From: Utricularia gibba
Lineage: Eukaryota > Streptophyta > Magnoliopsida > Lamiales > Lentibulariaceae
Assembly: GCA_002189035.1 (NCBI GenBank)
Contig: NEEC01000472.1
Span: forward strand, 1 to 25,546
DNA length: 25,546 nucleotides
Direction: 5' to 3'
The position numbers were made by a program, and so were the translations under genes. The notes beneath the pieces are model-generated. The model did no database searches. It had not been told where the DNA came from and was given only the letters and a program-made list of their open reading frames with translations. This document shows positions 1-25,546 of the stretch, in pieces. How positions within the stretch are numbered: position 1 is the first letter of the stretch; the number at the start of each line of letters is the position of its first letter.

Positions 1-2
1 GT

Positions 3-631
3 CATGAGATCCTAACTTCAATAAAGGTATCACGATTTTCGTCGAATGGGACCTTATTGTGCTGTGAAGTCAGACCGAACCTTGGGTCCGGACGAAGTTC
101 CCAACAACAGCACCGCGCCAAAAAACGACAACTTTTCCTTGAAAAAGCATGTAGGCAGCCGCCGAAAACCCAACGTTAATAAATGCATCACTTTTTTGGC
201 CGGGCTAAAAATGACTATGGGCCAGAGCGCGACTCGACCATTTGCTCGATACTAGAGCCAGCTTAAAGCACCTCGTCAAATAAAAATCAGGTTGTTGAGA
301 AAACCATTTGGGGCGCTCATGACATCCTAACTTCATTAAATGCATCACGATTTTCATCGAGTAGGACCCGATTGGGCTCAGGAGCCAGACCAAACCTTGG
401 GCCCTTACAAAGCTGCCAACGACAGCACCCGCCTTAAAACGGCAAGCTGTTGCTTGAAAAACCATGTGGGCAGCCGCCGACAACCCAACGTTAATAAATG
501 CATCATTCTTTTTTTCGGGCTACAGCTGACTTTGGGCCGAGCTCGACCCGAATTCCGGGCCGATCTCGGTGACCCACAAAAGCGCCTTCTCAAGTGTATA
601 GCATGCTGTTGAAAAAAGCATTTGGGGTAAT
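3..631 (+). repeat. HOR unit 1: dimer A2-B
   Basis: A is 3-317 and B is 318-631. The A monomer is subfamily A2 (CTAGAGCCAGCTTAAAGC, AAATAAAAATCAGG, GGGCTAAAAATGAC). It has CACCGCGCC in place of the usual CACCCGCC. The B core reads GCATCATTC instead of GCATCACTTC, one of few changes in the otherwise invariant core, followed by a longer T run. Only two bases of the preceding unit are visible. Confidence 0.94.
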
Positions 632-944
632 CATGAGATCCTAACTTCAATAAAGGTATCACGATTTTCGTCGAATGGGACCTATTGTGCTGTGAAGTCA
701 GACCGAACCTTGGGTCCGGACGAAGTTCCCAACAACAGCACCCGCCAAAAAACGACAACTTTTCCTTGAAAAAGCATGTAGGCAGCCGCCGAAAACCCAA
801 CGTTAATAAATGCATCACTTTTTTGGCCGGGCTACAAATGACTATGGGCCAGAGCGCGACTCGACCATTTGCTCGATACTAGTGCCAGCCTAGAGCACCT
901 CGTCAAATATAAATCAGGTTGTTGAGAAAACCATTTGGGGCGCT

Positions 945-1255
945 CATGACATCCTAACTTCATTAAATGCATCACGATTTTCATCGAGTAGGACCCGATT
1001 GGGCTCAGGAGCCAGACCAAACCTTGGGCCCTTACAAAGCTGCCAACGACAGCACCCGCCTTAAAACGGCAAGCTGTTGCTTGAAAAACCATTTAGGCAG
1101 CCGCCGAAAACCCAACGTTGATAAATGCATGACTTATTTTCCGGGCTACAACTGACTATGGGCGTGAGCCCGACCCGACCTCTGGCCCAATCCAAACCCC
1201 CGAGAGCGCCTTCTCAAATATAAAGTAGAGTGTGGAGAAAACCCATTGGGGTTCT
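945..1255 (+). repeat. Representative B' monomer (middle monomer of trimers)
   Basis: The first half matches B, including CCCGATTGGGCTCAGGAGCC. The second half diverges after GCTTGAAAAACCATTTAGGC: it has GTTGATAAATGCATGACTT, CTACAACTGACTATGGGCGT, then CTCAAATATAAAGTAGAGTG and CCCATTGGGGTTCTCATGAC. That second half looks partly like the A second half (GACTATGGGC, CAAATATAAA, GAGAAAACC) and partly like B (GAGCCCGACCCGA, GCGCCTTCTCAA). It has no GAATTC. It is seen only in the seven trimers at 632-13251. Confidence 0.88.
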
Positions 1256-1560
1256 CATGACATCCTAACAAAAGCAAATGCATCACGATTTTCATCGAGT
1301 AGGACCCGATTGGGCTCAGGAGCCGAACCTTGGGCCCTTACAAAGCTGCCAACGACAGCACCCGCCTTAAAACGGCAAGTTGTTGCTTGAAAATGTGGGC
1401 AGCCGCCGACAACCCAACGTTAATAAATGCATCACTTCTTTTGACGGGCTACAGCTGACTTTGTCCCCAAGCCGACCCGAATTCCGGCCCGATCTCGGTG
1501 ACCCACAAAAGCGCCTTCTCAAGTTTAAAGCATGCTGTTGAAAAAAGCATTTGGGGCGGT
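1256..1560 (+). repeat. Representative C monomer (third monomer of trimers)
   Basis: It begins CATGACATCCTAACAAAAGC, where B has CTAACTTCATTAAATGC. It then follows B closely but lacks the CAGACCAAA segment (AGGAGCCGAACCTTGGG). It is 4 bp shorter at GCTTGAAAATGTGGGC, has GACGGGCTAC and GACTTTGTCCCCAAGCC, and ends GTTTAAAGCATGCTG instead of the B ending GTGTATAGCATGC. It carries GAATTC. The unit following a C monomer usually begins after GGGGCGGTC. Confidence 0.88.
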
Positions 1561-2186
1561 CATGAGATCCTAACTTCAATAAAGGTATCACGATTTTCGT
1601 CGAATGGGACCTTATTGTGCTGTGAAGTCAGACCGAACCTTGGGTCCGGACGAAGTTCCAAACAACAGCACCCGCCAAAAAACGACAACTTTTCCTTGAA
1701 AAAGCATGTAGGCAGCCGCCGAAAACCCAACGTTAATAAATGCATCACTTTTTTGGCCGGGCTACAAATGACTATGGGCCAGAGCGCGACTCGACCATTT
1801 GCTCGATACTAGTGCCAGCCTAGAGCACCTCGTCAAATATAAATCAGGTTGTTGAGAAAACCATTTGGGGCGCTCATGACATCCTAACTTCATTAAATGC
1901 ATCACGATTTTCATCGAGTAGGACCCGATTGGGCTCAGGAGCCAGACCAAACCTTGGGCCCTTACAAAGCTGCCAACGACAGCACCCGCCTTAAAACGGC
2001 AAGCTGTTGCTTGAAAAACCATGTGGGCAGCCGCCGACAACCCAACGTTAATAAATGCATCACTTCTTTTATCGGGCTACAGCTGACTTTGGGCCCGAGC
2101 TCGACCCGAATTCCGGCCGATCTCGGTGACCCACAAAAGCGCCTTCTCAAGTGTATAGCATGCTGTTGAAAAAAGCATTTGGGGTT
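1561..2186 (+). repeat. HOR unit 3: dimer A1-B
   Basis: A is 1561-1874 and B is 1875-2186. A single substitution gives GTTCCAAACAAC. B has CTTTTATCGGGC, a variant shared with the unit at 2809 and therefore useful for tracing exchange. It has the GAGCTCGACC form and one C lost in TTCCGGCCGATC. Confidence 0.94.
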
Positions 2187-2808
2187 CATGAGATCCTAAC
2201 TTCAATAAAGGTATCACGATTTTCGTCGAATGGGACCTTATTGTGCTGTGAAGTCAGACCGAACCTTGGGTCCGGACGAAGTTCCCAACAACAGCACCCG
2301 CCAAAAAAACGACAACTTTTCCTTGAAAAAGCATGTAGGCAGCCGCCGAAAACCCAACGTTAATAAATGCATCACTTTTTTGGCCGGCTACAAATGACTA
2401 TGGGCCAGAGCGCGACTCGACCATTTGCTCGATACTAGTGCCAGCCTAGAGCACCTCGTCAAATATAAATCAGGTTGTTGAGAAAACCATTTGGGGCGCT
2501 CATGACATCCTAACTTCATTAAATGCATCACGATTTTCATCGAGTAGGACCCGATTGGGCTCAGGAGCCAGACCAAACCTTGGGCCCTTACAAAGCTGCC
2601 AACGACAGCACCCGCCTTAAAACGGCAAGCTGTTGCTTGAAAAACCATGTGGGCAGCCGCCAACCCAACGTTAATAAATGCATCACTTCTTTTTTCGGGC
2701 TACAGCTGACTTTGGGCCCGAGCCGACCCGAATTCCGGCCCGATCTCGGTGACCCACAAAAGCGCTTCTCAAGTGTATAGCATGCTGTTGAAAAAAGCAT
2801 TTGGGGTT
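2187..2808 (+). repeat. HOR unit 4: dimer A1-B
   Basis: A is 2187-2500 and B is 2501-2808. It has an A run lengthened to seven (CCGCCAAAAAAACG), one G lost (GGCCGGCTAC), three bases lost in CAGCCGCCAACCC and one C lost in AGCGCTTCTC. The incoming junction is the short GGGGTTC type. Confidence 0.94.
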
Positions 2809-3435
2809 CATGAGATCCTAACTTCAATAAAGGTATCACGATTTTCGTCGAATGGGACCTTATTGTGCTGTGAAGTCAGACCGAACCTTGGGTCCGGACG
2901 AAGTTCCCAACAACAGCACCCGCCAAAAAACGACAACTTTTCCTTGAAAAAGCATGTAGGCAGCCGCCGAAAACCCAACGTTAATAAATGCATCACTTTT
3001 TTGCCGGGCTAAAAAATGACTATGGGCCAGAGCGCGACTCGACCATTTGCTCGATACTAGAGCCAGCTTAAAGCACCTCGTCAAATAAAATCAGGTTGTT
3101 GAGAAAACCATTTGGGCGCTCATGACATCCTAACTTCATTAAATGCATCACGATTTTCATCGAGTAGGACCCGATTGGGCTCAGGAGCCAGACCAAACCT
3201 TGGGCCCTTACAAAGCTGCCAACGACAGCACCCGCCTTAAAACGGCAAGCTGTTGCTTGAAAAACCATGTGGGCAGCCGCCGACAACCCAACGTTAATAA
3301 ATGCATCACTTCTTTTATCGGGCTACAGCTGACTTTGGGCCCGAGCTCGACCCGAATTCCGGCCCGATCTCGGTGACCCACAAAAGCGCCTTCTCAAGTG
3401 TATAGCATGCTGTTGAAAAAAGCATTTGGGGTGGT
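2809..3435 (+). repeat. HOR unit 5: dimer A2-B
   Basis: A is 2809-3120 and B is 3121-3435. The A monomer is A2, with GGGCTAAAAAATGAC and CTAGAGCCAGCTTAAAGC. The A-B junction has one G fewer (TTTGGGCGCTC). B carries the CTTTTATCGGGC variant also seen in the unit at 1561. Confidence 0.94.
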
Positions 3436-4310
3436 CATGAGATCCTAACTTCAATAAAGGTATCACGATTTTCGTCGAATGGGACCTTATTGTGCTGTGA
3501 AGTCAGACCGAACCTTGGGTCCGGACGAAGTTCCCAACAACAGCACCCGCCAAAAAACGACAACTTTTCCTTGAAAAAGCATGTAGGCAGCCGCCGAAAA
3601 CCCAACGTTAATAAATGCATCACTTTTTTGGCCGGGCTACAAATGACTATGGGCCAGAGCGCGACTCGACCATTTGCTCGATACTAGTGCCAGCCTAGAG
3701 CACCTCGTCAAATATAAATCAGGTTGTTGAGAAAACCATTTGGGGCGCTCATGACATCCTAACTTCATTAAATGCATCACGATTTTCATCGAGTAGGACC
3801 CGATTGGGCTCAGGAGCCAGACCAAACCTTGGGCCCTTACAAAGCTGCCAACGACAGCACCCGCCTTAAAACGGCAAGCTGTTGCTTGAAAAACCATTTA
3901 GGCAGCCAAAACCCAACGTTGATAAATGCATGACTTATTTTCCGGGCTACAACTGACTATGGGCAGCCCGACCGACAATTTCTCAAATATAAAGTAGAGT
4001 GTGGAGAAAACCCTCATGACATCCTAACAAAAGCAAATGCATCACGATTTTCATCGAGTAGGACTTGGGCTCAGGAGCCGAACCTTGGGCCTTACAAAGC
4101 TGCCAACGACAGCACCCGCCTTAAAACGGCAAGCTGTTGCTTGAAAATGTGGGCAGCCGCCGACAACCCAACGTTAATAAATGCATCACTTCTTTTGACG
4201 GGCTACAGCTGACTTTGTCCCAGCCCGACCCGAATTCCGGCCCGATCTCGGTGACCCACAAAAGCGCCTTCTCAGTTTAAAGCATGCTGTTGAAAAAAGC
4301 ATTTGGGGGT
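3436..4310 (+). repeat. HOR unit 6: shortened trimer A1-B'-C
   Basis: A is 3436-3749, B' 3750-4014 and C 4015-4310. At 875 bp this is the most eroded trimer. B' lost bases in GGCAGCCAAAACCC, in GGGCAGCCCGACCGACAATT and before CCCTCATGAC, leaving it about 265 bp instead of 311. C lost CCGAT (AGGACTTGGGC). The erosion is concentrated in B' and the C start while A is intact. Confidence 0.92.
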
Positions 4311-4931
4311 CATGAGATCCTAACTTCAATAAAGGTATCACGATTTTCGTCGAATGGGACCTTATTGTGCTGTGAAGTCAGACCGAACCTTGGGTCCGGA
4401 CGAAGTTCCCAACAACAGCACCCGCCAAAAAACGACAACTTTTCCTTGAAAAAGCATGTAGGCAGCCGCCGAAAACCCAACGTTAATAAATGCATCACTT
4501 TTTTGGCCGGGCTACAAATGACTATGGGCCAGAGCGCGACTCGACATTTGCTCGATACTAGTGCCAGCCTAGAGCACCTCGTCAAATATAAATCAGGTTG
4601 TTGAGAAAACCATTTGGGGCGCTCATGACATCCTAACTTCATTAAATGCATCACGATTTTCATCGAGTAGGACCCGATTGGGCTCAGGAGCCAGACCAAC
4701 CTTGGGCCCTTACAAAGCTGCCAACGACAGCACCCGCCTTAAACGGCAAGCTGTTGCTTGAAAAACCATGTGGGCAGCCGCCGACAACCCAACGTTAATA
4801 AATGCATCACTTCTTTTTCGGGCTACAGCTGACTTTGGGCCCGAGCTCGACCCGAATTCCGGCCGATCTCGGTGACCCACAAAAGCGCCTTCTCAAGTGT
4901 ATAGCATGCTGTTGAAAAAAGCATTTGGGGT
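4311..4931 (+). repeat. HOR unit 7: dimer A1-B
   Basis: A is 4311-4623 and B is 4624-4931. It follows a trimer, but its incoming junction is GGGGGTC, without the CG of most post-trimer junctions. Single-base losses give CTCGACATTTG, ACCAACCTTGG and CTTAAACGGC. Confidence 0.94.
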
Positions 4932-5555
4932 CATGAGATCCTAACTTCAATAAAGGTATCACGATTTTCGTCGAATGGGACCTTATTGTGCTGTGAAGTC
5001 AGACCGAACCTTGGGTCCGGACGAAGTTCCCAACAACAGCACCCGCCAAAAAACGACAACTTTTCTTGAAAAAGCATGTAGGCAGCCGCCGAAAACCCAA
5101 CGTTAATAAATGCATCACTTTTTTTGCCGGGCTACAAATGACTATGGGCCAGAGCGCGACTCGACCATTTGCTCGATACTAGTGCCAGCTTAAAGCACCT
5201 CGTCAATAAAAAATCAGGTTGTTGAGAAAACCATTTGGGGCGCTCATGACATCCTAACTTCATTAAATGCATCACGATTTTCATCGAGTAGGACCCGATT
5301 GGGCTCAGGAGCCAGACCAAACCTTGGCCCTTACAAAGCTGCCAACGACAGCACCCGCCTTAAAACGGCAAGCTGTTGCTTGAAAAACCATGTGGGCAGC
5401 CGCCGACAACCCAACGTTAATAAATGCATCACTTCTTTTGTCGGGCTACAGCTGACTTTGGGCCCGAGCTCGACCCGAATTCCGGCCGATCTCGGTGACC
5501 CACAAAAGCGCCTTCTCAAGTGTATAGCATGCTGTTGAAAAAAGCATTTGGGGTT
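4932..5555 (+). repeat. HOR unit 8: dimer with A1/A2 hybrid A monomer
   Basis: A is 4932-5244 and B is 5245-5555. The A monomer reads CTAGTGCCAGC (A1 form) immediately followed by TTAAAGCACC and CAATAAAAAATC (A2 form). The switch falls inside about 10 bases. This is the clearest hybrid in the window. The incoming junction GGGGTC is the shortest of all. Confidence 0.93.
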
Positions 5556-6478
5556 CATGAGATCCTAACTTCAATAAAGGTATCACGATTTTCGTCGAAT
5601 GGGACCTTATTGTGCTGTGAAGTCAGACCGAACCTTGGGTCCGGACGAAGTTCCCAACAACAGCACCCGCCAAAAAACGACAACTTTTCCTTGAAAAAGC
5701 ATGTAGGCAGCCGCCGAAAACCCAACGTTAATAAATGCATCACTTTTTTGGCCGGGCTACAAATGACTATGGGCCAGAGCGCGACTCGACCATTTGCTCG
5801 ATACTAGTGCCAGCCTAGAGCACCTCGTCAAATATAAATCAGGTTGTTGAGAAAACCATTTGGGGCGCTCATGACATCCTAACTTCATTAAATGCATCAC
5901 GATTTTCATCGAGTAGGACCCGATTGGGCTCAGGAGCCAGACCAAACCTTGGGCCCTTACAAAGCTGCCAACGACAGCACCCGCCTTAAAACGGCAAGCT
6001 GTTGCTTGAAAAACCATTTAGGCAGCCGCCGAAAACCCAACGTTGATAAATGCATCACTTATTTTCCGGGCTACAACTGACTATGGGCGTGAGCCCGACC
6101 CGACCTCTGGCCCAATCCCAAACCCCCCGAGAGCGCCTTCTCAAATATAAAGTAGAGTGTGGAGAAAACCATTGGGGTTCTCATGACATCCTAACAAAAG
6201 CAAATGCATCACGATTTTCATCGAGTAGGACTTGGGCTCAGCCGAACCTTGGGCCCTTACAAAGCTGCCAACGACAGCACCCGCCTTAAAACGGCAAGCT
6301 GTTGCTTGAAAATGTGGGCAGCCGCCGACAACCAACGTTAATAAATGCATCACTTCTTTTGACGGGCTACAGCTGACTTTGTCCCCAGCCCGACCCGAAT
6401 TCCGGCCCGATCTCGGTGACCCACAAAAGCGCCTTCTCAAGTTTAAAGCATGCTGTTGAAAAAAGCATTTGGGGCGGT
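5556..6478 (+). repeat. HOR unit 9: trimer A1-B'-C
   Basis: A is 5556-5869, B' 5870-6181 and C 6182-6478. Its B' core reads GCATCACTT rather than the GCATGACTT of the other trimers. C lost bases at AGGACTTGGGCTCAGCCG and one C at ACAACCAACG. It begins a trimer+dimer block of 1548 bp. Confidence 0.94.
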
Positions 6479-7103
6479 CATGAGATCCTAACTTCAATAA
6501 AGGTATCACGATTTTCGTCGAATGGGACCTTATTGTGCTGTGAAGTCAGACCGAACCTTGGGTCCGGACGAAGTTCCCAACAACAGCACCCGCCAAAAAA
6601 CGACAACTTTTCCTTGAAAAAGCATGTAGGCAGCCGCCGAAAACCCAACGTTAATAAATGCATCACTTTTTTGGCCGGGCTACAAATGACTATGGGCCAG
6701 AGCGCGACTCGACCATTTGCTCGATACTAGTGCCAGCCTAGAGCACCTCGTCAAATATAAATCAGGTTGTTGAGAAAACCATTTGGGGCGCTCATGACAT
6801 CCTAACTTCATTAAATGCATCACGATTTTCATCGAGTAGGACCCGATTGGGCTCAGGAGCCAGACCAAACCTTGGGCCCTTACAAAGCTGCCAACGACAG
6901 CACCCGCCTTAAAACGGCAAGCTGTTGCTTGAAAAACCATGTGGGCAGCCGCCGACAACCCAACGTTAATAAATGCATCACTTCTTTTGTCGGGCTACAG
7001 CTGACTTTGGGCCCGAGCTCGACCCGAATTCCGGCCGATCTCGGTGACCCACAAAAGCGCCTTCTCAAGTGTAAGCATGCTGTTGAAAAAAGCATTTGGG
7101 GTT
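6479..7103 (+). repeat. HOR unit 10: dimer A1-B
   Basis: A is 6479-6792 and B is 6793-7103. The A monomer matches the consensus. The end of B reads GTGTAAGCATGCTG, two bases short of GTGTATAGC. The incoming junction GGGGCGGTC fits its position after a trimer. Confidence 0.95.
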
Positions 7104-7989
7104 CATGAGATCCTAACTTCAATAAAGGTATCACGATTTTCGTCGAATGGGACCTTATTGTGCTGTGAAGTCAGACCGAACCTTGGGTCCGGACGAAGTT
7201 CCCAACAACAGCACCCGCCAAAAAACGACAACTTTTCCTTGAAAAAGCATGTAGGCAGCCGCCGAAAACCCAACGTTAATAAATGCATCACTTTTTTGGC
7301 CGGGCTACAAATGACTATGGGCCAGAGCGCGACTCGACCATTTGCTCGATACTAGTGCCAGCCTAGAGCACCTCGTCAAATATAAATCAGGTTGTTGAGA
7401 AAACCATTTGGGGCGCTCATGACATCCTAACTTCATTAAATGCATCACGATTTTCATCGAGTAGGACCCGATTGGGCAGGAGCCAGACCAAACCTTGGGC
7501 CCTTACAAAGCTGCCAACGACAGCACCCGCTTAAAACGGCAAGCTGTTGCTTGAAAAACCATTTAGGCAGCCGCCGAAAACCCAACGTTGATAAATGCAT
7601 GACTTATTTTCCGGGCTACAACTGACTATGGGCGTGAGCCCGACCCGACCAATCCTTCTCAAATATAAAGTAGAGTGTGGAGAAAACCCATTGGGCATGA
7701 CATCCTAACAAAAGCAAATGCATCACGATTTTCATCGAGTAGGACTTGGGCTCAGGAGCCGAACCTTGGGCCCTTACAAAGCTGCCAACGACAGCACCCG
7801 CCTTAAAACGGCAAGCTGTTGCTTGAAAATGTGGGCAGCCGCCGACAACCCAACGTTAATAAATGCATCACTTCTTTTGACGGGCTACAGCTGACTTTGA
7901 AGCCCGACCCGAATTCCGGCCCGATCTCGGTGACCCACAAAAGCGCCTTCTCAAGTTTAAGCATGCTGTTGAAAAAAGCATTTGGGGGT
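7104..7989 (+). repeat. HOR unit 11: shortened trimer A1-B'-C
   Basis: A is 7104-7417, B' 7418-7695 and C 7696-7989. At 886 bp, B' lost about 25-30 bp at CCCGACCAATCCTTCTC and more at CCATTGGGCATGAC. C lost TCCCC at GACTTTGAAGCCC. The first half of B' also lost CT in TTGGGCAGGAGCC. Confidence 0.92.
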
Positions 7990-8615
7990 CATGAGATCCT
8001 AACTTCAATAAAGGTATCACGATTTTCGTCGAATGGGACCTTATTGTGCTGTGAAGTCAGACCGAACCTTGGGTCCGGACGAAGTTCCCAACAACAGCAC
8101 CCGCCAAAAAACGACAACTTTTCCTTGAAAAAGCATGTAGGCAGCCGCGAAAACCCAACGTTAATAAATGCATCACTTTTTTGGCCGGGCTACAAATGAC
8201 TATGGGCCAGAGCGCGACTCGACCATTTGCTCGATACTAGTGCCAGCCTAGAGCACCTCGTCAAATATAAATCAGGTTGTTGAGAAAACCATTTGGGGCG
8301 CTCATGACATCCTAACTTCATTAAATGCATCACGATTTTCATCGAGTAGGACCCGATTGGGCTCAGGAGCCAGACCAAACCTTGGGCCCTTACAAAGCTG
8401 CCAACGACAGCACCCGCCTTAAAACGGCAAGCTGTTGCTTGAAAAACCATGTGGGCAGCCGCCGACAACCCAACGTTAATAAATGCATCACTCTTTTTCG
8501 GGCTACAGCTGACTTTGGGCCCGAGCTCGACCCGAATTCCGGCCCGATCTCGGTGACCCACAAAAGCGCCTTCTCAAGTGTATAGCATGCTGTTGAAAAA
8601 AGCATTTGGGGTAAT
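7990..8615 (+). repeat. HOR unit 12: dimer A1-B
   Basis: A is 7990-8302 and B is 8303-8615. It has CAGCCGCGAAAACCC in A and GCATCACTCTTTTTCGGG in B. It follows a shortened trimer and has the GGGGGTC junction seen at the only other unit after a strongly shortened trimer (4311). Confidence 0.94.
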
Positions 8616-16373: not shown

Positions 16374-16998
16374 CATGAGATCCTAACTTCAATAAAGGTA
16401 TCACGATTTTCGTCGAATGGGACATTGTGCTGTGAAGTCAGACCGAACCTTGGGTCCGGACGAAGTTCCCAACAACAGCACCCGCCAAAAAACGACAACT
16501 TTTCCTTGAAAAAGCATGTAGGCAGCCGCCGAAAACCCAACGTTAATAAATGCATCACTTTTTTTTGCCGGGCTACGAATGACTATGGGCCAAGCGCGAC
16601 TCGACCATTTGCTCGATACTAGAGCCAGCTTAAAGCACCTCGTCGAATAAAAATCAGGTTGTTGAGAAAACCATTTGGGGCGCTCATGACATCCTAACTT
16701 CATTAAATGCATCACGATTTTCATCGAGTAGGACCCGATTAGGCTCAGGAGCCAGACCAAACCTTGGGCCCTTACAAAGCTGCCAATGACAGCACCCGCC
16801 TTAAAACGGCAAGCTGTTGCTTGAAAAACCATGTGGGCAGCCGCCGACAACCCAACGTTAATAAATGCATCACTTCTTTTGTCGGGCTACAGCTGACTTT
16901 GGGCCCGAGCTCGACCCGAATTCCGGCCGATCTCGGTGACCCACAAAAGCGCCTTCTCAAGTGTATAGCATGCTGTTGAAAAAAGCATTTGGGGCGGT
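16374..16998 (+). repeat. HOR unit 24: dimer A2-B with clustered substitutions
   Basis: A is 16374-16684 and B is 16685-16998. A lost CTTAT (GGGACATTGTGC). It has GGCTACGAATGAC and CGTCGAATAAAAATC, both shared only with the next unit. B has CGATTAGGCTC (G to A) and GCCAATGACAGC (C to T), which are genuine-looking substitutions. Confidence 0.94.
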
Positions 16999-17676
16999 CA
17001 TGAGATCCTAACTTCAATAAAGGTATCACGATTTTCGTCGAATGGGACCTTATTTGTGCTGTGAAGTCAGACCGAACTTGGGTCCGGACGAAGTTCCCAA
17101 CAACAGCACCGCCAAAAAACGACAACTTTTTCTTCAAAAGCATGTAGGCAGCCGCCGAAAACCCAACGTTAATAAATGCATCACTTTTTTGTCCGGGCTA
17201 CGAATGACTATGGGCCAGAGCGCGACTCGACCATTTGCTCGATACTAGAGCCAGCTTAAAGCACCTCGTCGAATAAAATCAGGTTGTTGAGAAAACCATT
17301 TGGGGCGCTCATGACATCCTAACTTCATTAAATGCATCACGATTTTCATCGAGTAGGACCCGATTGGGGAGCCAGACCAAACCTTGGGCCCTTACAAAGC
17401 TGCCAACGACAGCACCCGCCTTAAAACGGCAAGCTGTTGCTTGAAAAGGCAGCCGCCGACAACCCAACGTTAATAATGCATCACTTCTTTTGGGGCTACA
17501 GCTGACTTTGTTTCCGGCCGATTTCTCAAACTATGGGGGAATTATTGGGCTTTTTAAAGTGTTAATAATGCATCACTTCTTACAGCTGAAGCCGACCCGA
17601 ATTCCGGCCCGATCTCGGTGACCCACAAAAGCGCCTTCTCAAGTGTATTGCTGTTGAAAAAAGCATTTGGGGTGGT
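16999..17676 (+). repeat. HOR unit 25: scrambled dimer A2-B
   Basis: A is 16999-17309 and B is 17310-17676. A is A2 and shares GGCTACGAATGAC and CGTCGAATAAAA with the preceding unit. B is about 367 bp instead of 312, with internal losses (GATTGGGGAGCC, CTTGAAAAGGCAGCC) and a rearranged second half at 17489-17590. The unit is 678 bp. It separates the mixed left part of the array from the uniform right block. Confidence 0.92.
17469..17580 (+). repeat. 92-bp local direct duplication inside unit 25
   Basis: GTTAATAATGCATCACTTCT occurs at 17469-17488 and again at 17561-17580. Both copies carry the same private loss of one A (TAATAATGC; the array norm is TAATAAATGC), so the second copy came from the first. 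The material between includes recognisable fragments (TTCCGGCCGAT, TTCTCAA, ACTATGGG) and a short stretch I cannot place, about 17538-17557. The second copy then jumps to ACAGCTGAAGCCGACCCGAA. Confidence 0.82.
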
Positions 17677-17833
17677 CATGAGATCCTAACTTCAATAAAG
17701 GTATCACGATTTTCGTCGAATGGGACCTTATTGTGCTGTGAAGTCAGACCGAACCTTGGGTCCGGACGAAGTTCCCAACAACAGCACCCGCCAAAAAACG
17801 ACAACTTTTCCTTGAAAAAGCATGTAGGCAGCC
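17677..17833 (+). repeat. Basic half-unit a1 (first half of A)
   Basis: Half-unit boundaries are approximate and set from the ATCAC core, which lies at 17703 here. Successive cores in this dimer lie at 17703, 17860, 18016, 18173 and 18326, spacings of 157, 156, 157 and 153 bp. This half-unit carries TATCACGATTTTCGTCGA, then TGTGAAGTCAGACCGAACC, and ends in the A-rich CAAAAAACGAC...CTTGAAAAAGCATG stretch, which corresponds to GCTGTTGAAAAAAGCATTTG in b2. Confidence 0.8.
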
Positions 17834-17989
17834 GCCGAAAACCCAACGTTAATAAATGCATCACTTTTTTGGCCGGGCTACAAATGACTATGGGCCAGAG
17901 CGCGACTCGACCATTTGCTCGATACTAGTGCCAGCCTAGAGCACCTCGTCAATATAAATCAGGTTGTTGAGAAAACCATTTGGGGCGCT
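17834..17989 (+). repeat. Basic half-unit a2 (second half of A)
   Basis: The core at 17860 reads AATAAATGCATCACTTTTTT. It is followed by GGCCGGGCTACAAATGACTA, then the only A1/A2 subfamily-diagnostic stretch, CTAGTGCCAGCCTAGAGC. It ends TGTTGAGAAAACCATTTGGG, homologous to the end of b2. The preceding CCGCCGAAAACCCAACGTTA aligns with ATCCTAACTTCAATAAAGG of a1. Confidence 0.8.
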
Positions 17990-18146
17990 CATGACATCCT
18001 AACTTCATTAAATGCATCACGATTTTCATCGAGTAGGACCCGATTGGGCTCAGGAGCCAGACCAAACCTTGGGCCCTTACAAAGCTGCCAACGACAGCAC
18101 CCGCCTTAAAACGGCAAGCTGTTGCTTGAAAAACATGTGGGCAGCC
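17990..18146 (+). repeat. Basic half-unit b1 (first half of B)
   Basis: The core at 18016 reads TTAAATGCATCACGATTTTC, joining features of the a1 core (CACGATTTTC) and the a2/b2 cores (AAATGCATCAC). The following GATTGGGCTCAGGAGCCAG and ACCTTGGGCCC align with GACTTTGGGCCCGAGC and ATTCCGGCCC of b2. This supports common descent of all half-units. Confidence 0.8.
18115..18128 (+). other. Short inverted repeat in b1 (recurs in most B-type monomers)
   Basis: CAAGC-TGTT-GCTTG is a perfect 5-bp stem with a 4-nt loop. It recurs at the same place in most B, B' and C monomers, but not in A. One copy is altered (unit 22052, CGCAAGC, stem retained). The stem is too short to claim a functional hairpin, and its conservation is expected simply because the array is homogenised. 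Confidence 0.35.
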
Positions 18147-18299
18147 GCCGACAACCCAACGTTAATAAATGCATCACTTCTTTTTCGGGCTACAGCTGAC
18201 TTTGGCCCGAGCCCGACCCGAATTCCGGCCCGATCTCGGTGACCCACAAAAGCCTTCTCAAGTGTATAGCATGCTGTTGAAAAAAGCATTTGGGGTGGT
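18147..18299 (+). repeat. Basic half-unit b2 (second half of B)
   Basis: The core at 18173 reads AATAAATGCATCACTTC. It then runs CGGGCTACAGCTGACTTTGG, CCCGACCCGAATTCCGG, ATCTCGGTGACCCACAAAAG and GCATGCTGTTGAAAAAAGC. It holds the GAATTC and GCATGC sites. It ends at the variable junction GGGG-N-TCATGAG that separates one higher-order unit from the next. Confidence 0.8.
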
Positions 18300-18924
18300 C
18301 ATGAGATCCTAACTTCAATAAAGGTATCACGATTTTCGTCGAATGGGACCTTATTGTGCTGTGAAGTCAGACCGAACCTTGGGTCCGGACGAAGTTCCCA
18401 ACAACAGCACCCGCCAAAAAACGACAACTTTTCCTTGAAAAAGCATGTAGGCAGCCGCCGAAAACCCAACGTTAATAAATGCATCACTTTTTTGGCCGGG
18501 CTACAAATGACTATGGGCCAGAGCGCGACTCGACCATTTGCTCGATACTAGTGCCAGCCTAGAGCACCTCGTCAATATAAATCAGGTTGTTGAGAAAACC
18601 ATTTGGGGCGCTCATGACATCCTAACTTCATTAAATGCATCACGATTTTCATCGAGTAGGACCCGATTGGGCTCAGGAGCCAGACCAAACCTTGGGCCCT
18701 TACAAAGCTGCCAACGACAGCACCCGCCTTAAAACGGCAAGCTGTTGCTTGAAAAACCATGTGGGCAGCCGCCGACAACCCAACGTTAATAAATGCATCA
18801 CTTCTTTTGACGGGCTACAGCTGACTTTGGGCCCGAGCCCGACCCGAATTCCCCGATCTCGGTGACCCACAAAAGCGCCTTCTCAAGTGTATAGCATGCT
18901 GTTGAAAAAAGCATTTGGGGTGGT
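18300..18924 (+). repeat. HOR unit 27: dimer A1-B
   Basis: A is 18300-18612 and B is 18613-18924. It shares the CGTCAATATAAATC loss with the preceding unit. B has the C-like GACGGGCTAC and GAGCCCGACC and lost GGC at GAATTCCCCGATC. Confidence 0.95.
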
Positions 18925-19553
18925 CATGAGATCCTAACTTCAATAAAGGTATCACGATTTTCGTCGAATGGGACCTTATTGTGCTGTGAAGTCAGACCGA
19001 ACCTTGGGTCCGGACGAAGTTCCCAACAACAGCACCCGCCAAAAAACGACAACTTTTCCTTGAAAAAGCATGTAGGCAGCCGCCGAAAACCCAACGTTAA
19101 TAAATGCATCACTTTTTTGGCCGGGCTACAAATGACTATGGGCCAGAGCGCGACTCGACCATTTGCTCGATACTAGTGCCAGCCTAGAGCACCTCGTCAA
19201 ATATAAATCAGGTTGTTGAGAAAACCATTTGGGGCGCTCATGACATCCTAACTTCATTAAATGCATCACGATTTTCATCGAGTAGGACCCGATTGGGCTA
19301 AGGAGCCAGACCAAAACCTTGGGCCCTTACAAAGCTGCCAACGACAGCACCCGCCTTAAAACGGCAAGCTGTTGCTTGAAAAACCATGTGGGCAGCCGCC
19401 GACAACCCAACGTTAATAAATGCATCACTTCTTTTGACGGGCTACAGCTGACTTTGGCCCGAGCCCGACCCGAATTCCGGCCCGATCTCGGTGACCCACA
19501 AAAGCGCCTTCTCAAGTGTATAGCATGCTGTTGAAAAAAGCATTTGGGGTGGT
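18925..19553 (+). repeat. HOR unit 28: dimer A1-B
   Basis: A is 18925-19238 and B is 19239-19553. B has GGGCTAAGGAGCC (C to A), shared only with the unit at 21425, and an extra A in ACCAAAACCTTGG. Its second half begins with the C-like GACGGGCTAC. Confidence 0.95.
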
Positions 19554-20176
19554 CATGAGATCCTAACTTCAATAAAGGTATCACGATTTTCGTCGAATGG
19601 GACCTTATTGTGCTGTGAAGTCAGACCGAACCTTGGGTCCGGACGAAGTTCCCAACAACAGCACCCGCCAAAAAACGACAACTTTTCCTTGAAAAAGCAT
19701 GTAGGCAGCCGCCGAAAACCCAACGTTAATAAATGCATCACTTTTTTGGCCGGGCTACAAATGACTATGGGCCAGAGCGCGACTCGACCATTTGCTCGAT
19801 ACTAGTGCCAGCCTAGAGCACCTCGTCAAATATAAATCAGGTTGTTGAGAAAACCATTTGGGGCTCATGACATCCTAACTTCATTAAATGCATCACGATT
19901 TTCATCGAGTAGGACCCGATTGGGCTCAGGAGCCAGACCAACCTTGGGCCCTTACAAAGCTGCCAACGACAGCACCCGCCTTAAAACGGCAAGCTGTTGC
20001 TTGAAAAACCATGTGGGCAGCCGCCGACAACCCAACGTTAATAAATGCATCACTTCTTTTGTCGGGCTACAGCTGACTTTGGGCCCGAGCTCGACCCGAA
20101 TTCCGGCCCGATCGTGACCCACAAAAGCGCCTTCTCAAGTGTATAGCATGCTGTTGAAAAAAGCATTTGGGGTGGT
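19554..20176 (+). repeat. HOR unit 29: dimer A1-B
   Basis: A is 19554-19865 and B is 19866-20176. The A-B junction lost GC (TTTGGGGCTCATGAC). Further losses give ACCAACCTTGG and CCCGATCGTGACC. Confidence 0.95.
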
Positions 20177-20799
20177 CATGAGATCCTAACTTCAATAAAG
20201 GTATCACGATTTTCGTCGAATGGGACCTTATTGTGCTGTGAAGTCAGACCGAACCTTGGGTCCGGACGAAGTTCCCAACAACAGCACCCGCCAAAAAACG
20301 ACAACTTTTCCTTGAAAAAGCATGTAGGCAGCCGCCGAAACCCAACGTTAATAAATGCATCACTTTTTTGGCCGGGCTACAAATGACTATGGGCCAGAGC
20401 GCGACTCGACCATTTGCTCGATACTAGTGCCAGCCTAGAGCACCTCGTCAAATATAAATCAGGTTGTTGAGAAAACCATTTGGGGCGCTCATGACATCCT
20501 AACTTCATTAAATGCATCACGATTTTCATCGAGTAGGACCCGATTGGGCTCAGGAGCCAGACCAAACCTTGGGCCTTACAAAGCTGCCAACGACAGCACC
20601 CGCCTTAAAACGGCAAGCTGTTGCTTGAAAAACCATGTGGGCAGCCGCCGACAACCCAACGTTAATAAATGCATCACTTCTTTTGACGGGCTACAGCTGA
20701 CTTTGGGCCCGAGCCGACCCGAATTCCGGCCCGATCGGTGACCCACAAAAGCGCCTTCTCAAGTGTATAGCATGCTGTTGAAAAAGCATTTGGGGTGGT
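20177..20799 (+). repeat. HOR unit 30: dimer A1-B
   Basis: A is 20177-20489 and B is 20490-20799. It has CCGCCGAAACCC, TTGGGCCTTAC and CCCGATCGGTGACC. The loss around GATC(TC)GG resembles, but is not identical to, that in the previous unit. B is of the C-like GACGGGC form. Confidence 0.95.
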
Positions 20800-21424
20800 C
20801 ATGAGATCCTAACTTCAATAAAGGTATCACGATTTCGTCGAATGGGACCTTATTGTGCTGTGAAGTCAGACCGAACCTTGGGTCCGGACGAAGTTCCCAA
20901 CAACAGCACCCGCCAAAAAACGACAACTTTTCCTTGAAAAAGCATGTAGGCAGCCGCCGAAAACCCAACGTTAATAAATGCATCACTTTTTTGGCCGGGC
21001 TACAAATGACTATGGGCCAGAGCGCGACTCGACCATTTGCTCGATACTAGTGCCAGCCTAGAGCACCTCGTCAAATATAAATCAGGTTGTTGAGAAACCA
21101 TTTGGGGCGCTCATGACATCCTAACTTCATTAAATGCATCACGATTTTCATCGAGTAGGACCCGATTGGGCTCAGGAGCCAGACCAAACCTTGGGCCCTT
21201 ACAAAGCTGCCAACGACAGCACCCGCCTTAAACGGCAAGCTGTTGCTTGAAAAACCATGTGGCAGCCGCCGACAACCCAACGTTAATAAATGCATCACTT
21301 CTTTTGACGGGCTACAGCTGACTTTGGGCCCAAGCCCGACCCGAATTCCGGCCCGATCTCGGTGACCCACAAAAGCGCCTTCTCAAGTGTATAGCATGCT
21401 GTTGAAAAAAGCATTTGGGGTGGT
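20800..21424 (+). repeat. HOR unit 31: dimer A1-B
   Basis: A is 20800-21111 and B is 21112-21424. Single-base losses in homopolymers give CACGATTTCGTCG, GAGAAACCATT, CTTAAACGG and CATGTGGCAGCC. B has the C-like GACGGGC and GGGCCCAAGCCCG, intermediate between B and C. Confidence 0.95.
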
Positions 21425-22051
21425 CATGAGATCCTAACTTCAATAAAGGTATCACGATTTTCGTCGAATGGGACCTTATTGTGCTGTGAAGTCAGACCGA
21501 ACCTTGGGTCCGGACGAAGTTCCCAACAACAGCACCCGCCAAAAAACGACAACTTTTCCTTGAAAAAGCATGTAGGCAGCCGCCGAAAACCCAACGTTAA
21601 TAAATGCATCACTTTTTTGGCCGGGCTACAAATGACTATGGCCAGAGCGCGACTCGACCATTTGCTCGATACTAGTGCCAGCCTAGAGCACCTCGTCAAA
21701 TATAAATCAGGTTGTTGAGAAAACCATTTGGGGCGCTCATGACATCCTAACTTCATTAAATGCATCACGATTTTCATCGAGTAGGACCCGATTGGGCTAA
21801 GGAGCCAGACCAAACCTTGGGCCCTTACAAAGCTGCCAACGACAGCACCCGCCTTAAAACGGCAAGCTGTTGCTTGAAAAACCATGTGGGCAGCCGCCGA
21901 CAACCCAACGTTAATAAATGCATCACTTCTTTTGTCGGGCTACAGCTGACTTTGGGCCCGAGCTCGACCCGAATTCCGGCCCGATCTCGGTGACCCACAA
22001 AAGCGCCTTCTCAAGTTAAAGCATGCTGTTGAAAAAAGCATTTGGGGTGGT
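21425..22051 (+). repeat. HOR unit 32: dimer A1-B
   Basis: A is 21425-21737 and B is 21738-22051. It shares GGGCTAAGGAGCC with the unit at 18925. B ends CAAGTTAAAGCATG, close to the C-monomer ending (CAAGTTTAAAGC) although the rest of b2 is B-type, so this looks like a B/C hybrid end. Confidence 0.95.
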
Positions 22052-22676
22052 CATGAGATCCTAACTTCAATAAAGGTATCACGATTTTCGTCGAATGGGA
22101 CCTTATTGTGCTGTGAAGTCAGACCGAACCTTGGGTCCGGACGAAGTTCCCAACAACAGCACCCGCCAAAAAACGACAACTTTTCCTTGAAAAAGCATGT
22201 AGGCAGCCGCCGAAAACCCAACGTTAATAAATGCATCACTTTTTTGGCCGGGCTACAAATGACTATGGGCCAGAGCGCGACTCGACCATTTGCTCGATAC
22301 TAGTGCCAGCCTAGAGCACCTCGTCAAATATAAATCAGGTTGTTGAGAAAACCATTTGGGGCGCTCATGACATCCTAACTTCATTAAATGCATCACGATT
22401 TTCATCGAGTAGGACCCGATTGGGCTCAGGAGCCAGACCAAACCTTGGGCCCTTACAAAGCTGCCAACGACAGCACCCGCCTTAAAACGCAAGCTGTTGC
22501 TTGAAAAACCATGTGGGCAGCCGCCGACAACCCAACGTTAATAAATGCATCACTTCTTTTGTCGGGCTACAGCTGACTTTGGGCCCGAGCCGACCCGAAT
22601 TCCGGCCCGATCTGTGACCCACAAAAGCGCCTTCTCAAGTGTATAGCATGCTGTTGAAAAAAGCATTTGGGGTGGT
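22052..22676 (+). repeat. HOR unit 33: dimer A1-B
   Basis: A is 22052-22365 and B is 22366-22676. Losses occur at AAAACGCAAGC and GATCTGTGACC in B. The A monomer matches the block consensus. Confidence 0.95.
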
Positions 22677-23078
22677 CATGAGATCCTAACTTCAATAAAG
22701 GTATCACGATTTTCGTCGAATGGGACCTTATTGTGCTGTGAAGTCAGACCGAACCTTGGGTCCGGACGAAGTTCCCAACAACAGCACCCGCCAAAAAACG
22801 ACAACTTTTCCTTGAAAAAGCATGTAGGCAGCCGCCGAAAACCCAACGTTAATAAATGCATCACTTTTTTGGCCGGGCTACAAATGACTATGGGCCAGAG
22901 CGCGACTCGACCATTTGCTCGATACTAGTGCCAGCCTAGAGCACCTCGTCAAATATAAATCAGGTTGTTGAGAAAACCATTTGGGGCGCTCATGACATCC
23001 TAACTTCATTAAATGCATCACGATTTTCATCGAGTAGGACCGATTGGGCTCAGGAGCCAGACCAAACCTTGGGCCTTA

Positions 23079-23138
23079 TTTATGCTTGAGGCAGCTTCGG
23101 GCTGGTTTTTAACCATTGATGGGCAGGTTAGTTTGCTG
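23079..23138 (+). other. Short stretch with little satellite similarity in unit 34
   Basis: This ~60-bp stretch reads as shuffled fragments. TATGCTTGA, GGCAGC, TTCGGGCT and GCTGTTAATAAATGC can be matched to parts of the monomer in order, but GGTTTTTAACCATTGATGGG and CAGGTTAGTTTG cannot. It is the least repeat-like sequence in the window. I see no transposon ends, no target-site duplication and no coding signal. Confidence 0.6.
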
Positions 23139-23162
23139 TTAATAAATGCATTAATAAATGCA
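23139..23162 (+). repeat. Twelve-bp tandem duplication at the core of unit 34
   Basis: TTAATAAATGCA occurs twice in direct succession (23139-23150 and 23151-23162), followed by TCACTTCTTTTGACGGG of a C-type b2. All other half-units have this core once. It marks the right edge of the rearranged segment and suggests repair with short homology. Confidence 0.85.
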
Positions 23163-23293
23163 TCACTTCTTTTGACGGGCTACAGCTGACTTTGTCCCCC
23201 AAGCCCGACCCGAATTCCGGCCCGATCTGGGTGACCCACAAAAGCGCCTTCTCAAGTTTAAAGCATGCTGTTGAAAAAAGCATTTGGGGTGGT

Positions 23294-23921
23294 CATGAGA
23301 TCCTAACTTCAATAAAGGTATCACGATTTTCGTCGAATGGGACCTTATTGTGCTGTGAAGTCAGACCGAACCTTGGGTCCGGACGAAGTTCCCAACAACA
23401 GCACCCGCCAAAAAACGACAACTTTTCCTTGAAAAAGCATGTAGGCAGCCGCCGAAAACCCAACGTTAATAAATGCATCACTTTTTTGGCCGGGCTACAA
23501 ATGACTATGGGCCAGAGCGCGACTCGACCATTTGCTCGATACTAGTGCCAGCCTAGAGCACCTCGTCAAATATAAATCAGGTTGTTGAGAAAACCATTTG
23601 GGGCGCTCATGACATCCTAACTTCATTAAATGCATCACGATTTTCATCGAGTAGGACCCGATTGGGCTCAGGAGCCAGACCAAACCTTGGGCCCTTACAA
23701 AGCTGCCAACGACAGCACCCGCCTTAAAACGGCAAGCTGTTGCTTGAAAAACCATGTGGGCAGCCGCCGACAACCAACGTTAATAAATGCATCACTTCTT
23801 TTGTCGGGCTACAGCTGACTTTGGGCCCGAGCTCGACCCGAATTCCGGCCCGATCTCGGTGACCCACAAAAGTGCCTTCTCAAGTGTATAGCATGCTGTT
23901 GAAAAAAGCATTTGGGGTGGT
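23294..23921 (+). repeat. HOR unit 35: dimer A1-B
   Basis: A is 23294-23607 and B is 23608-23921. A matches the block consensus. B lost one C (ACAACCAACG) and has a C-to-T change in AAAAGTGCCTTC. Confidence 0.95.
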
Positions 23922-24546
23922 CATGAGATCCTAACTTCAATAAAGGTATCACGATTTTCGTCGAATGGGACCTTATTGTGCTGTGAAGTCAGACCGAACC
24001 TTGGGTCCGGACGAAGTTCCCAAACAGCACCCGCCAAAAAACGACAACTTTTCCTTGAAAAAGCATGTAGGCAGCCGCCGAAAACCCAACGTTAATAAAT
24101 GCATCACTTTTTTGGCCGGGCTACAAATGACTATGGGCCAGAGCGCGACTCGACCATTTGCTCGATACTAGTGCCAGCCTAGAGCACCTCGTCAAATATA
24201 AATCAGGTTGTTGAGAAAACCATTTGGGGCGCTCATGACATCCTAACTTCATTAAATGCATCACGATTTTCATCGAGTAGGACCCGATTGGGCTCAGGAG
24301 CCAGACCAAACCTTGGGCCCTTACAAAGCTGCCAACGACAGCACCCGCCTTAAAACGGCAAGCTGTTGCTTGAAAAACCATGTGGGCAGCCGCCGACAAC
24401 CCAACGTTAATAAATGCATCACTTCTTTTCGGGCTACAGCTGACTTTGGGCCCGAGCCCGACCCGAATTCCGGCCCGATCTCGGTGACCCACAAAAGCGC
24501 CTTCTCAAGTGTATAGCATGCTGTTGAAAAAAGCATTTGGGGTGGT
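23922..24546 (+). repeat. HOR unit 36: dimer A1-B
   Basis: A is 23922-24233 and B is 24234-24546. A lost three bases at TTCCCAAACAGC. B has the CTTTTCGGGCTAC form and GAGCCCGACC. Confidence 0.95.
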
Positions 24547-25175
24547 CATGAGATCCTAACTTCAATAAAGGTATCACGATTTTCGTCGAATGGGACCTTA
24601 TTGTGCTGTGAAGTCAGACCGAACCTTGGGTCCGGACGAAGTTCCCAACAACAGCACCCGCCAAAAAACGACAACTTTTCCTTGAAAAAGCATGTAGGCA
24701 GCCGCCGAAAACCCAACGTTAATAAATGCATCACTTTTTTGGCCGGGCTACAAATGACTATGGGCCAGAGCGCGACTCGACCATTTGCTCGATACTAGTG
24801 CCAGCCTAGAGCACCTCGTCAAATATAAATCAGGTTGTTGAGAAAACCATTTGGGGCGCTCATGACATCCTAACTTCATTAAATGCATCACGATTTTCAT
24901 CGAGTAGGACCCGATTGGGCTCAGGAGCCAGACCAAACCTTGGGCCCTTACAAAGCTGCCAACGACAGCACCCGCCTTAAAACGGCAAGCTGTTGCTTGA
25001 AAAACCATGTGGGCAGCCGCCGACAACCCAACGTTAATAAATGCATCACTTCTTTTGTCGGGCTACAGCTGACTTTGGGCCCGAGCCGACCCGAATTCCG
25101 GCCCGATCTCGGTGACCCCAAAAAGCGCCTTCTCAAGTGTTATAGCATGCTGTTGAAAAAAGCATTTGGGGTGGT
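24547..25175 (+). repeat. HOR unit 37: dimer A1-B
   Basis: A is 24547-24860 and B is 24861-25175. B has a local change at GTGACCCCAAAAAGCGCC (the array norm is GTGACCCACAAAAGCGCC) and an extra T at GTGTTATAGC. A matches the block consensus. Confidence 0.95.
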
Positions 25176-25546
25176 CATGAGATCCTAACTTCAATAAAGG
25201 TATCACGATTTTCGTCGAATGGGACCTTATTGTGCTGTGAAGTCAGACCGAACCTTGGGTCCGGACGAAGTTCCCAACAACAGCACCCGCCAAAAAACGA
25301 CAACTTTTCCTTGAAAAAGCATGTAGGCAGCCGCCGAAAACCCAACGTTAATAAATGCATCACTTTTTTGGCCGGGCTACAAATGACTATGGGCCAGAGC
25401 GCGACTCGACCATTTGCTCGATACTAGTGCCAGCCTAGAGCACCTCGTCAAATATAAATCAGGTTGTTGAGAAAACCATTTGGGGCGCTCATGACATCCT
25501 AACTTCATTAAATGCATCACGATTTTCATCGAGTAGGACCGATTGG
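25176..25546 (+). repeat. HOR unit 38: partial dimer cut by the window edge
   Basis: A (25176-25489) is complete and A1-type. Only the first 57 bases of B are present, ending GTAGGACCGATTGG. That GGACCGATT form, with one C lost, is otherwise seen only in the scrambled unit at 22677. The array clearly continues beyond the window. Confidence 0.93.

What the first reader, a model, noticed from the sequence alone, without database searches (positions are those of the whole stretch)
1..25546. Nested satellite: ~156-bp half-units, ~312-bp monomers, ~625-bp dimers and ~925-bp trimers
The core ATCAC recurs every 153-157 bp (for example 17703, 17860, 18016, 18173, 18326), and four distinguishable half-units a1-a2-b1-b2 make one dimer. 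All four align along their length, so a 156-bp ancestor probably duplicated twice, with divergence in between, before the array was amplified. The base period is close to known plant centromeric satellites (rice CentO about 155 bp, maize CentC about 156 bp) and to a nucleosome-scale length. I do not recognise the sequence family.
Basis: partly seen in the sequence, partly recalled or inferred. Interest (0 to 1): 0.7.

Follow-up and report, generated by a model that had tools for sequence, protein, structure and literature searches.

The report
Nested centromere-like satellite in a bladderwort
The window is one solid stretch of tandem-repeat DNA built from 156-bp halves, 312-bp units and 625-bp pairs; it belongs to a family that makes up several percent of a small plant genome (most likely the bladderwort Utricularia gibba), probably sits at or beside the centromeres of some chromosomes, and was not seen on four others.

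Summary
Confirmed. The whole window (contig C174) is one satellite array with autocorrelation peaks at 157, 314 and 625 bp. Its 312-bp monomer has two diverged halves (66-73% identical). Two monomer types (82-84%) alternate as a 625-bp dimer; 7 of 37 repeats are 875-929-bp trimers carrying a fifth half-unit. In a tree of 233 half-units from 18 contigs, odd and even halves separate without exception, so the 156-to-312 duplication is family-wide. Higher-order forms differ by contig: dimers here and in C7, four-monomer units in C47, mostly plain 312-bp monomers in C213.

The family has ~19,000 core sites in the 100-Mb assembly (about 6-7.5 Mb). Contig C213 has a telomere at one end and satellite at every point sampled in its last 218 kb, starting 0.3 kb after a Ty1/copia pol frame. 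Close relatives of that element cluster mainly at one place on each of five large contigs; four of these (C1-C4) show no exact satellite core. Best reading: a centromeric or pericentromeric satellite of some chromosomes, with satellite-poor, copia-rich centromeres on others. CENH3 occupancy is untested. A 2021 paper says U. gibba's putative centromeres lack satellites. The kind of repeat is ordinary; the mixed landscape is the interesting part.

The parts
1..25546 (.). One continuous satellite array (subfamily S2) filling the whole contig C174
   Evidence: TRF rows 2-3964, 4013-7649 and 7654-25546, all period 314; autocorrelation; segmentation into 170 pieces
17683..17839 (+). Reference half-unit a1 (157 bp), odd class, of a clean dimer
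   Evidence: cut and aligned
17840..17995 (+). Reference half-unit a2 (156 bp), even class
   Evidence: a1-a2 66% identical, z 6.4 against shuffles
17996..18152 (+). Reference half-unit b1 (157 bp), odd class; 82% identical to a1
18153..18305 (+). Reference half-unit b2 (153 bp), even class; 84% identical to a2
638..1566 (+). Example of a 929-bp trimer: a1 a2 b1 c2 b1 b2; the other six are 3442-4316, 5562-6484, 7110-7995, 9245-10160, 10785-11704, 12334-13257
   Evidence: segmentation and a1 start positions
1109..1261 (+). Fifth half-unit type c2 (80% to a2, 78% to b2)
   Evidence: other full copies at 6034-6187, 9715-9860, 11256-11398, 12805-12954
17005..17682 (+). Locally rearranged 678-bp repeat with partial b2/a1 pieces

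Best explanation
This is part of a long centromeric or pericentromeric satellite array of a small plant genome, most likely Utricularia gibba. SHOWN: an array of 312-bp monomers with two diverged ~156-bp halves, arranged in this contig as a nearly uniform 625-bp a/b higher-order repeat; at least three subfamilies; about 19,000 core sites; on C213, satellite at every sampled point of the last 218 kb of a contig whose other end is a telomere; a Ty1/copia element beside that array whose close relatives cluster mainly at one place on each of five large contigs, four of which (C1-C4) have no exact core match. INFERRED: the clusters mark centromeres, so the satellite lies at or beside centromeres of some chromosomes. 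There its repeats would wrap CENH3 or flanking H3 nucleosomes (one per ~156-bp half), be kept alike by unequal exchange and gene conversion, and be invaded at the edge by the copia element. Other chromosomes would have satellite-poor, copia-rich centromeres.
For: Array anatomy. Family tree. Copy number: 2,496 exact and 19,089 matches with up to 3 mismatches to a 27-mer core, 0 for the reversed control; one site per 312-394 bp in fetched arrays, so about 6.0-7.5 Mb of 100.09 Mb. Of 24 small contigs sampled by number before their content was known, 11 start in this family, 2 in sat340, 5 are withheld (N), 6 are other sequence. C213 has a telomere at base 1 and its satellite begins at 3,486,166; 24 kb read continuously and 12 spot samples up to the end at 3,704,653 are satellite, one of the 12 only 529 of 600 bases at 67% identity. 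Copia clustering (rows of 79-100% identity; 69-76% rows left out): a 300-kb stretch holds 5 of 5 elements on C1, 5 of 7 on C2, 5 of 5 on C3, 11 of 12 on C4, 4 of 5 on C413; uniform placement reaches this in 0, 15, 1, 0 and 51 of 20,000 trials. Distance from satellite edge to nearest such RT match: 1.1 kb (C213), at most 26.6 kb (C402), 465 kb (C414); combined p 5e-5 under uniform placement, chosen after the fact. A second, unrelated satellite (sat340) was sampled more than 2 Mb from the nearest listed copia on C244, C451 and C402, though its inner edges were not located.
Against: No CENH3 or cytology data. C414's satellite edge is 465 kb from the nearest listed family copia. Clustering on C451 (2 of 3) and C244 (2 of 2) is not significant, 4,930 and 3,370 of 20,000; other contigs were not tested. 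Only 150 of 1010 copia candidates were scored, so copies may be missed. Only 3 of 32 ends of 16 large contigs carry the satellite, one end being withheld, and at least 3 more contigs over 1 Mb were not examined. The C213 junction lies at a repeated element, so a misjoin is possible, though C402 gives a second adjacency not at a copia. On C402 the satellite is only part of a 2.3-kb composite repeat. C213's array is unsampled between 3,500,601 and 3,550,000. The window's contig has no unique flank, so its chromosome is unknown. WW-dinucleotide autocorrelation shows no convincing 10-bp rhythm (lag 10: 0.017).
Confidence: 0.72

Rival explanations
1. Pericentromeric heterochromatin block rather than the kinetochore-binding core: sat312 lies beside the centromere on some chromosomes, while CENH3 sits on the copia-rich DNA everywhere.
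For: The 80 kb fetched from copia clusters on C4 (50 kb), C3 (20 kb) and C1 (10 kb) contain no sat312 or sat340, so copia-rich DNA alone could suffice for a centromere; on C402 the three copia copies lie outside the sampled satellite composite.
Against: A span of about 218 kb of satellite at the inner end of the C213 arm; HOR structure and high homogeneity of this window, which are typical of active core arrays (general knowledge).
Confidence: 0.2
2. Non-centromeric knob or interstitial heterochromatin satellite, with the copia adjacency accidental.
For: Plants often carry such blocks (general knowledge); the C414 edge is 465 kb from a listed family copia.
Against: Adjacency on C213 and C402 against uniform placement (p 5e-5 with C414 included, post hoc); sat340, sampled far from the copia, serves as contrast.
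Confidence: 0.06
3. Subtelomeric satellite.
For: None found.
Against: On C213 the telomere is at the opposite end, about 3.49 Mb away; 0 of 13 telomere-bearing ends of the 16 large contigs show the satellite in the 0.7-1.5 kb read.
Confidence: 0.01
4. Assembly artefact: the hierarchy is produced by misassembly of a simple repeat.
For: Long-read assemblies can collapse or scramble arrays (general knowledge); one irregular 678-bp repeat is present.
Against: The same odd/even halves recur in 18 contigs, and half-units 91-97% identical to a1, a2, b1 and b2 recur in another contig, C47.
Confidence: 0.01

Closest known systems
New World monkey 343-bp alpha-satellite-type repeat (PMC4053949, passages seen)
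   Different: Unrelated organism; no sequence comparison made; here further two- and four-monomer repeats exist in some contigs
Genlisea nigrocaulis 161-bp repeat Gn7c161 (PMC4542322, passages seen), sister genus of Utricularia
   Same: Most abundant tandem repeat of a tiny Lentibulariaceae genome, about one nucleosome long, called centromere-associated there from FISH and antibody co-localisation
   Different: Its two published PCR primers match the sat312 consensus no better than shuffled primers (1574 and 1059 of 5000 shuffles as good); only primers could be compared
Rice CentO and maize CentC
   Same: Monomer length about 155-156 bp (maize 156 bp stated in a passage of PMC4053949; rice recalled)
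   Different: Sequence similarity not tested (no sequence at hand); here the family-wide unit is 312 bp with two diverged halves
Potato centromeres with and without satellite (Gong et al. 2012, via passages of PMC4620154)
   Same: Satellite-based and repeat-free centromeres coexist in one genome
   Different: In potato shown experimentally with CENH3 (recalled); here inferred from copia clusters and contig ends
[quoted passage not shown]
   Same: LTR retrotransposons invade both kinds of centromere (tobacco) or dominate tandem-repeat-poor centromeres (jujube)
   Different: Those elements are mainly Gypsy type; the marker here is Ty1/copia

Membership tests
Higher-order-repeat satellite DNA | Tandem array in which diverged monomer types recur in fixed order with near-identical multimers | tested here: met
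   29 of 37 a1-to-a1 distances 617-629 bp; median identity of copies to the reference 0.987-1.0 by type, against 82-84% between a and b
Plant centromeric satellite | Arrays of 100 kb or more | tested here: met
   C213: satellite at all 12 spot samples and 24 kb read between 3,486,166 and 3,704,653; not read continuously, one spot strongly diverged
Plant centromeric satellite | Lies at the centromere (primary constriction) | tested here: inconclusive
   Indirect only: adjacency to a copia family that clusters on five large contigs; no cytology
Plant centromeric satellite | Bound by CENH3 | not testable with these tools
   No ChIP data; a CENH3-like gene candidate is at C375:2691601-2695000
Plant centromeric satellite | Present on all chromosomes (typical, not obligatory) | tested here: inconclusive
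   No exact 20-mer core listed on C1-C6 although 6,406 matches exist (list in contig order). The 20-mer is frequent in S2 and S3 arrays but occurs only once in 20 kb of C213 and twice in 10 kb of C37, so a short S1 array on C1-C4 could be missed
CentO / CentC family | Sequence homology to the rice or maize repeat | not tested
   No reference sequence available in the tools; length only
Genlisea Gn7c161 | Sequence homology | tested here: inconclusive
   Only the two primers could be compared; no better than shuffled
Subtelomeric satellite | Adjacent to telomere repeats | tested here: not met
   0 of 13 telomere-bearing ends of the 16 large contigs show it in the 0.7-1.5 kb read
Structured RNA or rDNA repeat | Match to an RNA family | tested here: not met
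   0 Rfam matches over the window at gathering thresholds; this does not test rDNA spacer sequence
LTR-retrotransposon-derived tandem repeat | Similarity to LTR or coding part of a resident element | tested here: inconclusive
   No match between the satellite library and 80 kb of copia-rich pieces of C1, C3 and C4 or C414:128-10000; other elements not compared

The most novel reading that the evidence does not exclude
U. gibba has a mixed, potato-like set of centromeres in a ~100-Mb genome. Some chromosomes carry long arrays of the nested sat312 satellite, one perhaps carries a different ~530-bp satellite (C505), and at least four (C1-C4) have satellite-free centromeres made of nested copies of one centromere-seeking Ty1/copia family that also sits at satellite edges. 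This would correct the published view that its centromeres lack satellites: they lack them only on the chromosomes that could be assembled. (Probability lowered from 0.45 after one search showed that the exact core is a weak probe for S1 arrays.)
Probability: 0.42. Interest if true: 0.65.

Novelty: new member of a known kind. Interest (0 to 1): 0.5.

Why it matters
Satellite-based and satellite-free centromeres in one tiny, largely assembled plant genome would allow a direct test of how satellites invade or leave centromeres, with the same copia family marking both states. It also suggests that the statement in PMC8333044 (passages seen; it cites Lan et al. 2017, which is not held) that U. gibba's putative centromeres lack satellite repeats reflects which chromosomes could be assembled. 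The listings of my paper searches showed no description of this repeat; the library lacks most subscription journals and I read only passages.

Tried and rejected
Coding content: 17 ORFs of at least 100 aa on both strands of the window, the longest 159 aa; not followed up because they lie in repeats. Rfam: no match. A 625-bp similarity search of the genome had too many candidates and was not scored, so core patterns were used instead. Nucleosome rotational signal: no convincing 10-bp rhythm. Kinship to the Genlisea 161-bp repeat: primers no better than shuffled. Kinship of sat312 and sat340: no blastn hit at E <= 1. No LTR pair was found in the 5.7 kb fetched beside the C213 array, so the copia's ends are unknown. 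An IQ-TREE bootstrap failed on a thread setting and was not rerun; FastTree support is given instead. Subtelomeric, rDNA and artefact readings were considered and rejected (see rivals). Near-matches of the satellite on C1-C4 cannot be seen, because the listing shows only the first 100 places. Sat312 inside the other large contigs was not tested. Two notebook lines are wrong: one search gives dimer and trimer counts 28 and 8 (recount 29 and 7) and leaves out the 69-76% copia rows.
Full report
What the window is. The window is all of contig C174 of assembly G000 (100,091,633 bases, 516 contigs) and is satellite DNA from end to end. Tandem Repeats Finder gives period 314 in three rows covering nearly all of it. 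Autocorrelation peaks at 157, 314 and 625 bp, z 13.2, 14.2 and 11.9. No Rfam family matches.

Hierarchy. Four reference half-units cut from a clean dimer show a1-b1 82% and a2-b2 84% identity (z 21.1 and 17.0), and 66-73% between odd and even halves (z 4.4-7.1), each against 300 shuffles. A dynamic-programming segmentation gave 170 pieces, 161 of full size. Of 37 a1-to-a1 distances, 29 are 617-629, 7 are 875-929 and 1 is 678 bp. The longer repeats read a1 a2 b1 c2 b1 b2, where c2 is a fifth half-unit (five full copies at 80-83% to a2, two in pieces). All seven lie between 638 and 13257. Copies of each type are nearly identical (median 0.987-1.0 to the reference), so amplification or homogenisation is recent relative to the a/b split.

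Family. In 233 half-units sampled from 19 loci on 18 contigs, odd and even halves separate completely, FastTree support 1.0. The family-wide consensus halves are 70% identical over 147 aligned sites, z 8.7 against 2000 shuffles; the in-register score is the highest of all rotations, tied by a one-base shift; identity is uneven, from 0.8 in the first 20 columns down to 0.5 in several others. Three groups emerge: S1 (C34, C37, C50, C56, C110, C213; half-units within a contig 88-96% identical), S2 (this window, C47, C490) and S3 (C7, C8, C18, C20, C22, C24, C260; 63-75% to the rest); C160 is intermediate. Spacing of successive identical 15-mers shows the higher-order form of each array: one 312-bp unit is commonest in C213 (49-53%) and C37 (42%), two in this window (63%) and C7 (73%), four in C47 (61%); C8 is mixed. 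So the first duplication is family-wide, and the larger multimers arose in particular arrays, more than once.

Abundance. A 27-mer core has 2,496 exact and 19,089 matches with up to 3 mismatches, reversed control 0. At one site per 312-394 bp in fetched arrays this is about 6.0-7.5 Mb. Of 24 small contigs sampled by number only, 11 begin in this family, 2 in a second satellite, 5 are withheld and 6 are other sequence.

Organism. Plant telomere repeats cap several contigs. PMC8333044 (passages) describes 4 putatively entire chromosomes, 18 contigs over 1 Mb and a 'Unitig_8 (6.8 Mb)' in Utricularia gibba; here C451 is 6,822,880 bp, C1-C4 start with telomere repeats and C3 and C4 also end with them. 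At least 19 contigs exceed 1 Mb, and a review gives 581 contigs (PMC5793159, passages), so the match is close but not exact. The organism is inferred, not given.

Position on chromosomes. Both ends of 16 large contigs were read (32 ends, one of them N). Sat312 is at 3: C213 end (1500 of 1500 bases), C402 end (596 of 1500), C414 start (148 of 1500). C213 begins with telomere repeats and its satellite starts at 3,486,166. Twelve spot samples between 3,490,001 and 3,675,600, 4.4 kb at the edge and the last 20 kb are satellite; 11 of the 12 spots are fully covered, and the one at 3,500,001 is covered for 529 of 600 bases at 67% identity. C402 ends in a 2.3-kb composite repeat with about 860 bp of sat312 each. 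C414 starts with about 126-148 bp of sat312 followed by Ty3/gypsy gag and RNase H frames.

Copia marker. A Ty1/copia pol frame ends about 0.3 kb before the C213 satellite, and its RT match 1.1 kb before. Searching the genome with its RT (151 matches; 150 of 1010 candidates scored; list cut) gave relatives at 79-100% identity, a few at 69-76%, and other families at 59% or less. The 79-100% rows cluster on C1 (5.01-5.29 Mb), C2 (2.82-3.07, two outliers), C3 (4.53-4.74), C4 (1.98-2.05, one outlier) and C413 (2.93-3.00, one outlier); clustering is significant on these five, not on C451 or C244, and was not tested on others. They also lie at C402 2.54-2.57 Mb, just inside its satellite end, which begins between 2,581,001 and 2,595,001. 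On C414 the nearest is 465 kb away. The gypsy gag of C414, by eye, is spread more widely around many of the same places, with exceptions such as C375 (117 of 646 candidates scored). Eighty kilobases from the C4, C3 and C1 clusters hold no sat312 or sat340.

Are C1-C4 free of it? The exact 20-mer core has 6,406 matches and the first listed contig is C7, so none is listed on C1-C6. This excludes arrays like this window (72 exact cores in 25.5 kb) but is a weak probe for S1: one exact core in 20 kb of C213, two in 10 kb of C37. An S1 array the size of C213's would be expected to show about ten; a few tens of kb could be missed.

Contrast satellite. A second satellite of 336-356 bp, without detectable similarity to sat312, ends C244 and C451 and starts C402. 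Where sampled it lies more than 2 Mb from the nearest listed copia, but its inner edges were not located and one sample on C451 is withheld. It looks like a distal block, which makes the sat312-copia adjacency less likely to be a generic property of satellites.

Interpretation. Shown: structure, abundance, subfamilies, adjacency. Inferred: copia clusters mark centromeres; sat312 is centromeric or pericentromeric on a subset of chromosomes; half-units carry one nucleosome each; unequal exchange keeps the dimer uniform. Against: no CENH3 data; C414; non-significant clustering on two contigs; a possible misjoin at C213; the adjacency statistic was chosen after seeing the data. PMC8333044 says putative centromeric regions lack satellites; this survey agrees for C1-C4 within its limits, but the statement cannot hold for the whole genome if C213 is sound and the reading right.

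Comparison. The architecture matches the New World monkey 343-bp repeat with two weakly related halves (PMC4053949, passages); mixed centromeres are known from potato (PMC4620154, passages) and tobacco (PMC12596083, passage). The kind of system is therefore known; the family and the landscape in this plant look undescribed in the search listings seen.

Noticed in passing
G000 C244 end, C451 end, C402 start, C32, C200 (loci L043, L050, L030, L023, L091): A second satellite family of 336-356 bp units, no detectable similarity to sat312; 4,054 exact matches to a 14-mer core, first listed contig C32.
   Followed up: partly
G000 C505:1-1500 (L035), also C79, C100, C147, C293, C378: A third tandem repeat of about 530 bp, 99% uniform at C505's start, 1,100 matches with up to 2 mismatches; C505 also carries the clustering copia family at 23 and 58 kb.
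   Followed up: partly
G000 C402:2619908-2629907 (L054): A ~2.3-kb composite tandem repeat combining ~860 bp of sat312 with 62-bp repeats, itself tandemly amplified.
   Followed up: partly
G000 C4:1976677-2051951: Eleven RT matches (copies or pieces) of one Ty1/copia family on both strands within 75 kb near the middle of a contig with telomeres at both ends, with no satellite in the 50 kb fetched: a candidate copia-based centromere.
   Followed up: partly
G000 C375:2691601-2695000, minus strand (L097): Exon-like pieces of a divergent, intron-containing histone H3 resembling CENH3; the motif judgement is recalled, and the structure-database search shows only that it is H3-like.
   Followed up: partly
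G000 C98:3094553-3136923: Copia matches arranged partly as a mirror-image pair near the contig end, possibly an inverted duplication or assembly palindrome.
   Followed up: no
G000 C1, C2, C409, C505 and some small contigs: Contig lengths are multiples of 2,500 (for example 8,500,000), which may mean that end stretches were withheld, so missing telomeres there say little.
   Followed up: no
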